DNA of 64,000 nt from Kaistia geumhonensis (GTDB lineage: Bacteria > Pseudomonadota > Alphaproteobacteria > Rhizobiales > Kaistiaceae). Position numbers and translations under genes: made by a program. Location of the stretch: NCBI RefSeq assembly GCF_030815145.1, contig NZ_JAUSWJ010000001.1, forward strand, positions 2,170,001 to 2,234,000, read 5' to 3'. Shown here in pieces: positions 3,937 to 59,082 of the stretch (positions are counted from its first letter, which is position 1; each line of letters opens with the position of its first letter). A model generated the notes under the pieces. That model was not told the DNA's origin and did not search any database. It saw only the letters and a program-made list of their open reading frames with translations.

Positions 3937-5451
3937 TCAGCCGTCCACCCACCACGAGGTGCGGGGACCGCGATGGAACTGGATCGTCTTCGATTCCGTG
4001 AAGTCCTCGACGGCGCCCTTGCCAAGCTCGCGGCCGACGCCGCTCTGCTTCATGCCGCCGAAGGGCAGCTCCGGATAGCCGTCCATGAAGGTGTTGACCC
4101 AGACCGTGCCGGTGCGCGCGGCGCGCGCCACCGTCACCGCCGTGTCGATGTCCTTCGACCACACGCCGGCCGAGAGGCCGTAGTCGGTCGTGTCGACAAG
4201 CCGGATCGCCTCCTCGACGCGCTCGAACTCCATGACCGAGAGGACGGGTCCGAACACCTCGTCGCGGGCGATCGCCATCTCGGGCTTCACGCCGGTGACG
4301 ACGGTCGGCGCCATGTATTGGCCGGCGCCGCTCGCAAGGCCCGCGCCGCCGATCGCGACCGAAGCGCCGTCGGCCGAGGCGTCGACCACGGCATTCTCGA
4401 TCTTCTTCAGATGCTCGGGCGTGATGATAGCGCCGACCTTTGTCGCGTCGTCGAGCGGATCGCCGACCCTGACCTTCGCCGCCCGCTTCTCGAAGGCGGC
4501 GAGGAAATCGGCCGCCACCGCCTTGTGGACGATGAGGCGGCTGCCGGCATTGCAGCATTCGCCGGCATTGAAGAAGGCGCCGAACACGGCGGCATCGACC
4601 GCCGCCTCGAGATCGGCATCGGGGAACACGACCTGCGCGTTCTTGCCGCCGAGTTCCATCGCGACCTTCTTCAGCGTCGCCGAGGCCGCCTGCATGGTCG
4701 CCTTGCCGACGCGGGTCGAGCCGGTGAAGGTCACCATGTCGACCGAGGGATGCGTCACCATATGGGCGCCGACCTCGGGGCCGGTGCCGAGCACGATGTT
4801 GCAGACGCCTTCCGGCAGGCCTGCCTCCATGAGCAGTTCGCCGAGCACCACCGTCGAGGCCGACGTCATCTCGCTCGGCTTGACGATGGCCGTGCAGCCG
4901 GCGGCGAGCGCGAAGGGCAGCTTCTGTGCGACGATCAGGAACGGAAAGTTCCAGGGCGTGATGATCGAGACGACGCCGATCGGCTCGCGCAGCACGACGC
5001 CGAGCATGCTGTCGCCGAGATTGGCGTAGCTCTCGCCGTGCAGCGTGCGCGCCAGCGAGGCGGCATAGCGCCAGATATCGGCAGCGCCCGCGACCTCGCC
5101 GCGCGCCTGCGCGATCGGCTTGCCGCTCTCGAGCGCGTCGAGCCGGGCGATCTCCTCGCGGCGGGCATCGATGAGATCGGCTGTCTTCAGGAGGACGGCG
5201 GCGCGGTCGGCGGCCTTCATCCGTGGCCAGGGGCCGCGATGAAACGCGCGGCGCGCGGCGGCGGCGGCGCGGTTGACGTCGCCCTCCGAGCCGAAGGCAT
5301 AGCGGCTGACCAGCACGCCGTGGCCGGGGCTGACGCGCTCGCCCTCGAGGCCGACCTCGCCATCCGTCCACTTGCCGTCGATCAGCATCTGGTAGCGGCG
5401 GGGTCCGCTTTGCGCCTCGGGAAGGTGCTTCGGATCGATATGGAGTGTCAT
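3937..5451 (-). CDS. NAD(P)-dependent aldehyde dehydrogenase
   Basis: Cytoplasmic enzyme oxidising an aldehyde to a carboxylate, 504 residues, full family length. Visible motifs are the oxyanion and substrate region ITPWNFPF, the cofactor loop FTGSTRVGK, the general-base glutamate in MELGGKN, the catalytic cysteine in [12 protein letters not shown], and EVFGPVLSV. It resembles betaine- or aminobutyraldehyde-type dehydrogenases, but the physiological aldehyde cannot be told from sequence. It begins 1 bp after the stop of the enoyl-CoA hydratase and is followed after 55 bp by the binding protein. It is therefore part of the catabolic half of the operon. Confidence 0.93.
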
Positions 5452-52896: not shown

Positions 52897-56191
<3,295 letters not shown>

Positions 56192-56207
56192 GCTCTGTTG
56201 ACAGAGT
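56192..56207 (+). repeat. Left terminal inverted repeat of the insertion
   Basis: GCTCTGTTGACAGAGT directly after the left CTAG. It matches the right end at 14 of 16 bases. The following 120 bp, up to the tetR stop, contain no recognisable gene or transposase start. Confidence 0.75.
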
Positions 56208-56329
56208 TTTGTCACGTCTCCCTGCGGACGCTTTGCCGAAACTCCTGCCGCTGGCCTTTGACCGCTCGTGGAGTGTCAAGATTGCCCGAAATCCTGCCGC
56301 TCCGCGTTGTGTTGATATCTCCGCTAATC

Positions 56330-56953
56330 CTAGACAAGCCGACCTTCATTTTGCGGTGAAACGTCGGTTGAGCCCTCGTAGCTAGGGGTGTCGTTTTCGA
56401 TCACCAATCGTCCCCGGAGTTGGTCGATAGCCCGTTGGAAAACCGCTGGATCGTCCAGTGCCCGAGAAAGAATTATTGCTCCTTGGATAGCGAGAACTGC
56501 CTCTTCCGCGAGGAGGCGCGATTGATCGGCTTCACGGCCCTGCCGAATAAGCGCTGACTGCAATGCGTCCACCCAAGCTACGAAATAACCTCGGATGGCT
56601 TGCGCGAAGAGGTCACGCGTATTGGCCACTGCCAGGGCACCGACGAGGCACACGCGCCTGCCGGACCGAAAATACTGGTCCGTCGAAGCGAGCATTGCAC
56701 GGATGGCACCGTTGACATCGCTCTCGTTGCGCAACGGGGAATAGACGGCATCCTCGAACCATTGGCCGATTTCGTCGAGGACAGCCCGCACCATCTCTTC
56801 CTTTCCGTTCGGGAAGAAGTGGTAGAGGCTGCCCTTGCCGAGACCGGTAGCCTTGCCGATCAAGGCAAGGCTTGCGCCTTCGTAGCCATGTTCGCGGAAA
56901 ACTTCGGCCAACGGGGCTATGGCGTCGGCCCTTTCAGCGACCATGCGGGCCAT
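56330..56953 (-). CDS. TetR family regulator carried by the insertion
   Basis: 207-residue regulator. The helix-turn-helix reads REHGYEGASLALIGKATGLG then KGSLYHFFPNGKEEM at about residues 18-52, followed by a TetR C-terminal domain. It starts 2 bp after the stop of the DUF1348-like gene, so the two form an operon read toward the left. Two identical palindromes at 57449-57481 in front of that operon are its probable operators. Codon use and G+C are visibly lower than in neighbouring genes, in keeping with horizontal arrival. An ATG at 56944 is an alternative start. Confidence 0.88.
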   Translation of the reverse strand: MARMVAERADAIAPLAEVFREHGYEGASLALIGKATGLGKGSLYHFFPNGKEEMVRAVLDEIGQWFEDAVYSPLRNESDVNGAIRAMLASTDQYFRSGRRVCLVGALAVANTRDLFAQAIRGYFVAWVDALQSALIRQGREADQSRLLAEEAVLAIQGAIILSRALDDPAVFQRAIDQLRGRLVIENDTPSYEGSTDVSPQNEGRLV

Positions 56954-56955
56954 GA

Positions 56956-57419
56956 CTAGAGGCCCAGATCGCTGAGGCTGGCGTGATCATCCGGCCGACG
57001 GCCAAGCGGCCAGTGGAACAGACGATCGCTTTCAGCAATCGGCATTTCATTGATGCTCGCGTGTCTGTGCGCCATCAGACCGTCCTCTGCGAATTCCCAG
57101 TTCTCGTTACCATATGCGCGGTACCAGCGGCCGCCATCGTCGCGATATTCATACGCGTAGCGTACCGCGATGCGGTTACCGGTGAACGCCCATAGCTCCT
57201 TTATGAGGCGGTATTCGTGCTCCTTGTTCCACTTACGTGTCAGAAATGCCTGAGCTTCTTCGCGATTGCTCGCGAACTCGACGCGGTTCCGCCAGCGGGT
57301 GTCGAGCGTATAGGCCAGAGCAACTTTCGCCGCGTCTCTGGTGTTCCAGCCGTCCTCCGCCAACCGAACCTTTTCGATGGCGCTCTCGCGGGTGAAGGGG
57401 GGAGTGGGGGACGTGACAT
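56956..57419 (-). pseudogene. DUF1348 / nuclear transport factor 2-like protein, frameshifted near the N-terminus
   Basis: The body ([20 protein letters not shown] to [18 protein letters not shown]) is a typical DUF1348 protein of the SnoaL/NTF2 fold, about 150 residues. The normal N-terminus MSRPPLPP is encoded from the ATG at 57419, but the continuing [12 protein letters not shown] is in another frame. One base is missing in a run of six C (57397-57402, G on the plus strand). Without correction, translation could begin only at a poor TTG at 57363, losing about 20 residues. It may be a true mutation, a phase-variable tract or a sequencing error. Confidence 0.75.
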
Positions 57420-57448
57420 CTCTAGTTCCCAGTTGAATTGATGAAAGT

Positions 57449-57481
57449 GTACCGATCGGTAATTTGTTTACCGATCGGTAC
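57449..57481. promoter_or_regulatory. Double TetR operator
   Basis: Two perfect TACCGATCGGTA palindromes at 57450-57461 and 57469-57480, 19 bp centre to centre, together forming a larger inverted repeat of 14-bp arms around TTTGT. They lie 30-60 bp upstream of the DUF1348-like start, the expected promoter position, so the cargo TetR protein probably represses its own operon. Confidence 0.8.
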
Positions 57482-57739
57482 AGTTACCCAGGAGCCTGTG
57501 GTTGTCAATCGGCATTTCCGTCTGGCTGCTCGAGATCGATTGGGAGCGGCGCGTTGTAGACTCGTTGGCGCCGCTACCGATCAGATCGGAGCGTGCTCAC
57601 TCTGGTGCGATCGCGAGGGAGGCCGTACGCAACAGGGTATTTTCTAGAAGACGGATTAAATCCGGCCCAAGTCCTGCTACCCAAGCTGCTTCCCAAATCA
57701 GCGGAAGCGTGATTCAAAACTACCTCTTGGGAAGCGGTT
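57482..57739. other. Non-coding stretch between operator and transposase fragment
   Basis: No gene is supported in this 258-bp stretch. It contains a 9-bp inverted repeat, GCTTCCCAA (57688-57696) and TTGGGAAGC (57727-57735), just before the readable transposase fragment. This could be the junction, or an end of another element, where the transposase 5' part was replaced. Confidence 0.4.
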
Positions 57740-58141
57740 TTTGGCTCGCGGCGAGCCAACGGTCAGGGACGCCCTCTTGGCTTCGTCCTGGCAGGCGGGG
57801 AGGATTCGGACCACAACGCCGTTCCCGACCGGCTGGCGATACCAGTCGGCAAGCCGAGACTGTTCCTTGCCGACAAGGGCTACGATGGTGATTTCCTGCG
57901 CGAGGAACTCCTGACCCATGGAATCAGCCCAGTCATTCCGCCGAAGGCCAACCGGAAGAAGCCGCCTGTCTGCGACATCCGGGTTTACACGGACAGAAAC
58001 CGCATCGAGCGGTTGTTCAATCGCCTCAAGCAATTCAGTCGCGTTGCGACCCGATACGACAAGACACGAACATCCTTCTCAGCATTCCTTGCCCTGGCCG
58101 CCGCAAAGATATGGCTGCCATACTTTGTCAACAGTGCCTAG
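57740..58141 (+). pseudogene. IS5-family transposase, 3' fragment
   Basis: About 133 codons of the C-terminal DDE transposase domain. Readable blocks are GRPLGFVLAGGEDSDHNAVP, LFLADKGYDGDFLREEL with a catalytic-region aspartate, SPVIPPKANRKK, DRNRIERLFNRLKQF with the glutamate, RYDKTRTSFSAFLALAAAKI and the end LPYFVNSA. The stop TAG is formed by the flanking CTAG target. The N-terminal half, with the first catalytic aspartate and the start codon, is absent, so no functional transposase can be made. Confidence 0.85.
58122..58137 (-). repeat. Right terminal inverted repeat of the insertion
   Basis: ACTTTGTCAACAGTGC on the plus strand, within the last codons of the transposase fragment and directly before CTAG. 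Its reverse complement matches the left end at 14 of 16 bases. Confidence 0.75.
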
Positions 58142-59082
58142 TTCGGCTCGGGCGGTTGGTGGCGCTGCTTGGGGGTCTTGAGGCCGGACCAGCTGGCGTT
58201 GATCTCGGCGCCGACCAGAACGACCAGCGCCGTGAACCACAACCAGAGCAGAAGGATCACCGGTCCGCCGAGCGAGCCATAGGTCGCGTCATAGACGGCG
58301 ATGCGCGTAACGTAGAACGAGAACAGCGAGCAGCCCGGCAACCAGATCAGCGTCGCGGCGATGGCGCCCGGCATCATACGGCGCGCCCGTCGCCACGGCC
58401 CGCCCGGCTTCCTGTGCGGCACGACGAAATAGACCGCGGAGATCGACAGGAAGGCGATCAGCGCCAGGATCGGCCAGCGGATGAGCAGCAGCGTCGCGGT
58501 GTTGGCGTTCGGGGCGTGGAGCAGCGACAACGCGACCGGAACGGCCGCGATCACCGAAAGCGTCAGCACGGCGAATATGACGGCGCCAATCGTCAGGACG
58601 AGCGAGATGCCGACCGATACGAAGATGTTTCGGTCGTCGCGCACCTCATAGGCGAAATTGACGCCACTCATGAGGGCGGCGACACCGGCGCGCGCCGACC
58701 AGAGCGCGATCGCGGTCGCGACGACGAGGCCGGTATTCAGCTGCGCCGGCCCCTTCTTCGCAAGGCCCGTGAGGAAATCGAGCACGATCGGCCGTGCCTC
58801 GTCGGGCAGAATCGACGCGATCTGCGCCGCGTGCCTGGTCACGTTGGAGAGGTCGAACAGCAGGCCGTAGAGCGAAATGAAGATCGCGAGCGCGGGAAAA
58901 ACGGCAAGGAAGCTGTAGAACGCGACACCGGCCGCAATGAGCGCATCGTCATGGGCGACGAAACGGACGAAGACGTTGGAGAGAAGCTTCCAGCCCGTGA
59001 TGTGCCAGGGCCGCGGCGAATTCGTCGCCGCGGTCTCGCTGCGCGACGTCCGCGCCTCTGCCACATCAGCCCGCATCGCCAT
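58138..59082 (-). CDS. YihY/UPF0761 family inner-membrane protein
   Basis: Polytopic membrane protein of 314 residues with about six hydrophobic segments, of the family once misnamed ribonuclease BN. The typical opening of the domain, DDALIAAGVAFYSFLAVFPAL, lies near residue 45. YEVRDDRNIF and GPVILLLWLWFTALVVLVGAEINA follow. The C-terminal tail is short and polar. Its TAG stop is contributed by the CTAG at the right edge of the insertion. It is convergent with dedA, which ended at the same tetranucleotide before the insertion. Function of the family is unknown. Confidence 0.9.
   Translation of the reverse strand: MAMRADVAEARTSRSETAATNSPRPWHITGWKLLSNVFVRFVAHDDALIAAGVAFYSFLAVFPALAIFISLYGLLFDLSNVTRHAAQIASILPDEARPIVLDFLTGLAKKGPAQLNTGLVVATAIALWSARAGVAALMSGVNFAYEVRDDRNIFVSVGISLVLTIGAVIFAVLTLSVIAAVPVALSLLHAPNANTATLLLIRWPILALIAFLSISAVYFVVPHRKPGGPWRRARRMMPGAIAATLIWLPGCSLFSFYVTRIAVYDATYGSLGGPVILLLWLWFTALVVLVGAEINASWSGLKTPKQRHQPPEPN

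What the first reader, a model, noticed from the sequence alone, without database searches (positions are those of the whole stretch)
56188..58141. IS-bounded cargo unit inserted in a CTAG shared by two stop codons
Seen directly: a 1.95-kb segment between two CTAG copies, with matching terminal repeats (14 of 16 bases), lower G+C, a two-gene tetR operon and only the 3' part of an IS5-family transposase. The ends imply it moved as one unit, so the tetR/DUF1348 pair was captured inside an IS870-like element, replacing the 5' half of its transposase. The CTAG supplies the stop of dedA, of yihY and of the transposase remnant, so removing the insert leaves two convergent genes sharing CTAG. A passenger-carrying, non-autonomous derivative of this IS group with its own regulator would be worth describing.
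Basis: partly seen in the sequence, partly recalled or inferred. Interest (0 to 1): 0.75.

Follow-up and report, generated by a model that had tools for sequence, protein, structure and literature searches.

The report
Cargo-carrying insertion sequence, now crippled
A small jumping DNA element that carries a regulated pair of bacterial genes landed between two genes without breaking either, and one full-length and several damaged copies of the same element sit elsewhere in related bacteria, showing that it moved as one unit.

Summary
The 1,946-bp segment 56192-58137 lies between two CTAG copies, its ends match 14 of 16, and a same-genus genome has the empty site with one CTAG. I found the unit at four other places: a full-length 2,326-bp copy in Rhizobium rhizolycopersici with CTAG on both sides and an open two-ORF IS5-family transposase, and decayed copies in Aminobacter pANY103b and two unnamed Rhizobiaceae genomes. 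The tetR/DUF1348 pair did not replace the transposase's 5' half; it lies outside the IS's old left end, which survives, decayed, at 57671. An outer left end bounds the unit instead, so IS plus cargo moves together (a transporter IS). The missing transposase part is a separate 381-bp deletion seen only in this copy; its DUF1348 gene also has a 1-nt frameshift. Cargo genes are under purifying selection. A second passenger lineage of the same IS group carries its cargo on the opposite side. Best label: a defective copy of an apparently undescribed transporter IS; ISfinder could not be consulted.

The parts
55586..56191 (+). dedA-like gene (VTT domain), stop codon TAG lies in the left CTAG
   Evidence: ORF; Pfam; empty-site comparison
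56188..56191 (.). left CTAG target-site copy
   Evidence: single CTAG in congener G013
56192..56207 (.). outer left terminal repeat GCTCTGTTGACAGAGT
   Evidence: 14/16 to the right end; present in five of five copies, 13-15 of 16 to the parent IS end
56211..56329 (.). about 110-bp non-coding stretch related to intergenic sequences on other rhizobial plasmids and to stretches in other Rhizobiaceae genomes
56330..56953 (-). tetR passenger gene (TetR_N + LmrA/YxaF-like C domain), intact
   Evidence: dN/dS 0.10-0.27 among the five copies
56956..57419 (-). DUF1348 (NTF2/SnoaL-like) passenger gene; a G missing in the run 57397-57402 puts the native ATG out of frame in this copy
57450..57480 (.). two TACCGATCGGTA palindromes 19 bp apart, probable TetR operators upstream of DUF1348-tetR
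   Evidence: present as TACC-N4-GGTA pairs in five of five copies; role inferred
57671..57686 (.). decayed inner left end of the IS (GTCCTGCTACCCAAGC; parent GTCCTGTTGACAAAGT)
57671..58137 (+). IS body, 847 bp in the cargo-free relatives, here with a 381-bp internal deletion at 57752 (CGA at both borders)
57713..58138 (+). transposase remnant (DDE_Tnp_1) matching ORF B only; its stop TAG is at 58139-58141 in the CTAG
   Evidence: that the first catalytic Asp is the part lost is my assignment from recalled DDE motifs
58122..58137 (.). right terminal repeat ACTTTGTCAACAGTGC
58138..58141 (.). right CTAG target-site copy; supplies the stop of yihY (minus strand) and of the transposase remnant
58138..59082 (-). 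yihY/BrkB-family gene
   Evidence: ORF; Pfam

Best explanation
This is a defective copy of a transporter IS: an IS5-family, IS427/IS870-type insertion sequence whose working left end is no longer its original one but a second 16-bp terminal repeat about 1.5 kb further out, so that a tetR/DUF1348 operon with its own operator lies inside the moving unit. Shown: the unit has five copies at different sites; the window site has a precise empty counterpart; two copies have perfect CTAG duplications; one copy has a complete two-ORF transposase; the inner left end carries the same core changes in all four copies that keep it. Inferred: the transposase recognises outer left plus right end and inserts at CTAG, the loss of the inner end locking the cargo in. 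The unit probably arose when an IS inserted at a CTAG beside the genes and paired with the solitary tip of another copy of the same IS. In the window the transposase has lost 381 bp, so this copy should not move without help. The cargo is probably a TetR-controlled small-molecule response gene: TetR represses DUF1348-tetR from the paired palindromes until a ligand relieves it.
For: Whole-unit relatives: Aminobacter pANY103b, 97% of the query covered at 88% (annotated); R. rhizolycopersici L046, 95-96% with the full IS; G639 and G409. Perfect CTAG on both sides in the window and Rhizobium copies. Empty site with one CTAG. The 847-bp IS without cargo, CTAG-flanked, exists in Shinella and Allorhizobium plasmids. 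Inner left end: the GAC core reads ACC in four of four copies that keep it, while TTGACA is kept in the outer left end of five of five. Transposase ORFs open in the Rhizobium copy at 96 and 97% identity to the Shinella IS. Cargo dN/dS 0.03-0.27 among copies, the window DUF1348 counted from residue 5 on. Cargo homologues in 13 other fetched loci show no IS or left-end match.
Against: The Aminobacter copy reads GTAG on the left and CTAG on the right, G409 reads CTAG/CTAA, and G639 has CTGG on the left and has lost its right end, so only two of five copies have perfect duplications. By bare counts the contrast between outer left (13-15 of 16) and inner left (11-12 of 16) ends is modest. No transposition was observed. 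The window genome holds no other PF01609 transposase, so whether the deletion preceded arrival is unknown. The origin of the outer left repeat is inferred only. An exact TACC-N4-GGTA was not found in the 500-nt stretches scanned of the two Agrobacterium homologues. The ligand and function of the cargo are unknown.
Confidence: 0.88

Rival explanations
1. One reading: the tetR/DUF1348 pair was captured inside an IS870-like element and replaced the 5' half of its transposase, creating a non-autonomous unit that then moved.
For: The window copy alone looks like this: left repeat, cargo, 3' transposase.
Against: The Rhizobium, Aminobacter and G639 copies keep 5' transposase sequence next to the cargo (G639 only its first 48 residues), and the IS's own left end lies between cargo and transposase in all four copies that reach it.
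Confidence: 0.04
2. A degraded composite transposon: two whole IS copies once flanked the cargo, the left one shrank to its terminal 16 bp, and the unit moves as any composite transposon does. This differs from the best explanation only in how the outer left end came about and how recently the left copy was whole, so it is compatible with it.
For: The outer left repeat is IS-like only over about 16 bp and then joins unrelated DNA; the Aminobacter copy still has CTAG before the inner IS left end.
Against: No copy with two whole ISs was seen among the places that the plasmid and genome searches listed (these score few candidates per genome and draw samples). All five copies share the same short left end, so the reduction would be older than their spread.
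Confidence: 0.3
3. The window copy came in already deleted and was moved in trans by a related transposase, like a mobile insertion cassette. Compatible with the best explanation of the unit itself.
For: It has both ends and CTAG duplicates but matches only ORF B of the transposase; G409 is another copy with most of the IS deleted.
Against: None of the other four copies has the 381-bp deletion (Rhizobium, Aminobacter and G639 keep sequence inside it, G409 has other borders) and no PF01609 helper is in the genome now; a deletion after arrival explains the data equally well.
Confidence: 0.3
4. Two unrelated IS remnants that happen to face each other.
For: The outer left repeat is followed by DNA that is not IS.
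Against: Empty site with one CTAG, four further copies of the same arrangement, and both ends matching one parent.
Confidence: 0.01

Closest known systems
IS870 / IS427 group of the IS5 family
   Same: CTAG target that also supplies the transposase stop codon (title of Fournier et al. 1993, seen only as a reference entry in PMC6471742); two overlapping ORFs with a frameshift motif and DDE complete only in the fusion (IS427 group, passages of PMC3281130; here two ORFs). That IS870 belongs with this group is recalled.
   Different: Carries a two-gene passenger operon between a new outer left end and the transposase; its original left end is decayed.
Transporter IS (tIS)
   Same: An IS with passenger genes (passages of PMC9330008, PMC7986276 and PMC10132070).
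   Different: The tIS examples named in those passages belong to the IS6 and IS1202 families. Here the unit is larger than the cargo-free IS because of end replacement, with the fossil inner end still visible.
Composite transposons and TMo-type modules
   Same: IS-driven movement of adjacent DNA (passages of PMC3281130 and PMC9330008).
   Different: Only one IS body, and one conserved outer end in five copies rather than a variable stretch.
tetR-DUF1348 pairs of Agrobacterium pAt plasmids (e.g. C58)
   Same: Same gene pair and order, about 80-82% nucleotide identity.
   Different: No IS or left-end match next to them in the two loci examined, C58 and 1D1108.

Membership tests
IS5 family, IS427/IS870 type | DDE_Tnp_1-type transposase | tested here: met
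   PF01609 51.8 bits over cut-off 23
IS5 family, IS427/IS870 type | two overlapping ORFs with frameshift, catalytic residues complete only in the fusion | tested here: met
   two open ORFs in different frames in the Shinella, Allorhizobium and Rhizobium copies; the frameshift and the fusion are inferred; the window copy has lost ORF A and the junction
IS5 family, IS427/IS870 type | CTAG target duplicated, supplying the transposase stop | tested here: met
   window and Rhizobium copies and the two cargo-free ISs read; imperfect in the Aminobacter and G409 copies
IS5 family, IS427/IS870 type | assignment by ISfinder sequence comparison | not testable with these tools
   ISfinder not available
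IS5 family, IS427/IS870 type | IHF-like site in the left end (partial matches reported for 8 Paracoccus IS427-group elements) | tested here: inconclusive
   no site with at most one mismatch in the first 100-150 bp of the Shinella IS, the Rhizobium IS and the two unit left ends; the paper reports partial matches, so this stricter scan does not exclude one
transporter IS (tIS) | passenger genes unrelated to transposition between the terminal repeats of one IS | tested here: met
   tetR and DUF1348 inside CTAG-flanked repeats in the window and Rhizobium copies
transporter IS (tIS) | own functional transposase | tested here: inconclusive
   open ORFs in the Rhizobium copy; lost in the window copy; activity not tested
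composite transposon | two IS copies flanking the cargo | tested here: not met
   only about 16 bp of IS-like sequence on the left in all five copies

The most novel reading that the evidence does not exclude
This IS group repeatedly turns itself into a gene carrier by end-switching: a second terminal repeat appears outside, the inner one decays, and the enlarged unit becomes the only thing that can move. Two lineages show it on opposite sides: tetR/DUF1348 on the left (five copies) and a 149-aa orphan protein on the right (G678, Rhizobium sp. CC1099 and three partial copies). In the first, the TetR operators lie between cargo and transposase and might also couple transposition to the cargo's inducer.
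Probability: 0.4. Interest if true: 0.62.

Novelty: new member of a known kind. Interest (0 to 1): 0.45.

Why it matters
It gives a concrete series (cargo-free IS, full cargo unit with a decayed inner end, deleted copies) for how an IS becomes a passenger-carrying transposon. The CTAG preference lets the element land between convergent genes without breaking either stop codon. The cargo shows purifying selection while the transposase is broken in four of five copies, suggesting that the genes, not the mobility, are what hosts keep.

Tried and rejected
Parent IS in the same genome: none; the remnant is the only PF01609 match. The 'captured inside the transposase' model was rejected by the full-length copy. 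Other IS with the left end GGCTCTGTTGACANAGTTTTGTC: one exact hit in genome contigs, the Rhizobium unit itself, and none in viral contigs. A relaxed pattern in 394 Rhizobiaceae genomes gave 9 places in 8 genomes: three belong to the units of G336 (both ends; the Rhizobium genome) and G639; G631 and G418 hold near-complete ISs and G412 a partial one; G678 is the second passenger lineage; G577 and G419 gave no IS match. Rfam: one match far below its gathering score, outside the unit. Phage records hold two partial matches, both to the IS part. The empty site of the Rhizobium copy is not base-precise: in G409 both flanks match, but about 90 bp at the site are diverged. Literature: nine searches for tIS, IS5-family passengers, IS427, IS870 and DUF1348 listed no paper whose title or abstract start describes this unit; several lists were capped (20 of 1,004, 15 of 175, 15 of 108, 20 of 34), I read passages or a reference entry of six papers only (searches cover seven, of which PMC7371123 was not used), and most subscription papers are not held.

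Full report
Observation. The window lies in a single-contig 4.59-Mb genome. Segment 56192-58137 sits between CTAG at 56188 and CTAG at 58138. Its ends match at 14 of 16 positions as inverted repeats. Of 152 CTAG pairs in the window the next best score is 9; in 300 sets of 16-mers drawn at random from the window the best pair reached 14 once and 13 once. G+C is 0.582 against 0.681 and 0.658 in the flanks. The unit is single copy in the genome (two further matches are 41-51 bp long), and its transposase remnant is the only PF01609 match there.

Empty site. The yihY flank was sought in 14 genomes of the genus, this one included. Six congeners with a long match were examined for both flanks: three (G013, G007, G001) have dedA and yihY adjacent without an insert; in the other three the dedA flank gave no match. 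In G013 the two flanks (88 and 90%) overlap in exactly one CTAG, reading AACGACTAGTTCGGC. The insertion therefore duplicated a CTAG shared by two convergent stop codons and left both genes intact.

Other copies. (i) Aminobacter plasmid pANY103b: 97% of the query covered at 88%, the only one of 419 matching plasmid records with at least 80% coverage. (ii) Rhizobium rhizolycopersici DBTS2 (L046): 2,326 bp, 95-96% to the window copy, CTAG on both sides, ends GCTCTGTTGACAAAGT and ACTTTGTCAACAGGGC, and both transposase ORFs open. (iii) G639: left end and cargo present, IS truncated after about 210 bp, CTGG on the left. (iv) G409: CTAG on the left, most of the IS deleted, right tip CAACAGAAC followed by CTAA. 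The left flanks differ at all five sites. Search depth: with the left-end query, 3 of 394 Rhizobiaceae genomes matched from its first base and 4 more matched only the intergenic stretch; of 385 class-level genomes only the window's own matched. With the left-and-cargo query, 34 of 397 order-level genomes matched at E 1e-60 or better, and among the places listed only G336 (the Rhizobium genome) and the window's own covered the left end. These searches are samples and score few candidates per genome.

Anatomy. Two cargo-free relatives read in full are 847-bp elements with CTAG on both sides, in Shinella HZN7 and Allorhizobium plasmids. Their 16-bp ends are identical or one base off GTCCTGTTGACAAAGT, and they have two ORFs in different frames, the second of which ends in the TAG of the target CTAG. 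In the cargo unit the IS lies to the right of the cargo and its own left end is still there, but decayed. At 57671 the window reads GTCCTGCTACCCAAGC; Rhizobium, Aminobacter and G639 share the core change GAC to ACC. The Aminobacter copy even keeps CTAG in front of that inner end. The outer left repeat keeps TTGACA in five of five copies. By bare counts the contrast is modest (outer 13-15, inner 11-12 of 16); the shared change in the core is the stronger argument. The window copy lacks 381 bp of the transposase, with CGA at both deletion borders, and matches only ORF B; by recalled DDE motifs this removes the first catalytic Asp. The transposase is broken in four of the five copies.

Cargo. TetR carries TetR_N and an LmrA/YxaF-like C domain, and DUF1348 is an NTF2/SnoaL-like protein with one solved relative, 2imj, named only as hypothetical protein DUF1348. 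All five copies have two TACC-N4-GGTA palindromes 19 bp apart in front of DUF1348; none was found in the 500-nt stretches scanned of the C58 and 1D1108 homologues. The operator region nevertheless gives weak matches in 7 of 13 cargo homologue loci that have no IS match, 1D1108 among them. dN/dS among the five copies is 0.10-0.27 for tetR and 0.03-0.09 for DUF1348 (the window DUF1348 counted from residue 5 on), which points to purifying selection. In the window the DUF1348 gene has six instead of the Rhizobium copy's seven G at 57397-57402, which puts the native ATG out of frame; this may be real decay or a homopolymer error. A fungal DUF1348 protein (71cR) was studied for resistance to the polyketide cercosporin; its authors hypothesised that it might degrade or alter the molecule but obtained no evidence for that (passages of PMC4608573). 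A ligand-induced response to small molecules is therefore my inference only.

Second lineage. G678 holds a 1,334-bp element of the same IS group. It has TTAG before the left end, both transposase ORFs open, a 149-aa ORF with no Pfam match in place of the right tip, then ACTTTGTCAACAGGGC and CTAG. Rhizobium sp. CC1099 pCC1099_1 has nearly the whole element (from base 3) at 82%, but its right end is followed by GAAG, not CTAG; three further plasmid records (L088, L089, L091) have parts, and a fourth (L090) has only the cargo at 73% with no IS match. The inner right end is unrecognisable (best 7-10 of 16 in five copies, which is chance level), while the outer end scores 15 of 16 in the two most complete copies and 12, 10 and 9 in the three partial ones. 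So the same IS group appears to have gained cargo at least twice, on opposite sides, each time with a decayed inner end.

Interpretation. The unit is a transporter IS of the IS5 family, IS427/IS870 type; the window copy is a crippled example without a complete transposase. Shown: unit mobility by empty site and several sites, CTAG duplication, open transposase ORFs in one copy, decayed inner end. Inferred: use of the outer end by the transposase, the origin of that end from the tip of another IS copy, repression by TetR, and the role of the cargo. tIS are a known kind (passages). In the papers I could search I saw none in the IS427/IS870 group, but the lists were capped and ISfinder was not available, so I file it as a new member of a known kind.

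Noticed in passing
L085:2914-4247 (G678 C18), minus strand: A second passenger-carrying element of the same IS group, 1,334 bp, with a 149-aa orphan ORF between the transposase and the right end; a nearly whole copy in L087 and partial copies in L088, L089 and L091.
   Followed up: partly
window 56211-56329; L022, L023, L024, L025, L064, L066, L067, L068: About 80-118 bp of the unit's left non-coding stretch resembles stretches on other rhizobial plasmids (between annotated genes in four of four looked at) and in four Rhizobiaceae genomes (71-79%), as if a dispersed intergenic repeat had been caught with the cargo.
   Followed up: partly
window 57397-57402: A G run of 6 instead of the Rhizobium copy's 7 puts the native DUF1348 start out of frame; a real frameshift or a sequencing error.
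   Followed up: partly
window 57424-57740: The TetR palindromes lie between the leftward cargo operon and the rightward transposase remnant, so the regulator could also act on the transposase promoter in intact copies.
   Followed up: no
L017:2409-2412 and 4660-4663: The Aminobacter copy has GTAG on the left and CTAG on the right, an imperfect duplication.
   Followed up: no
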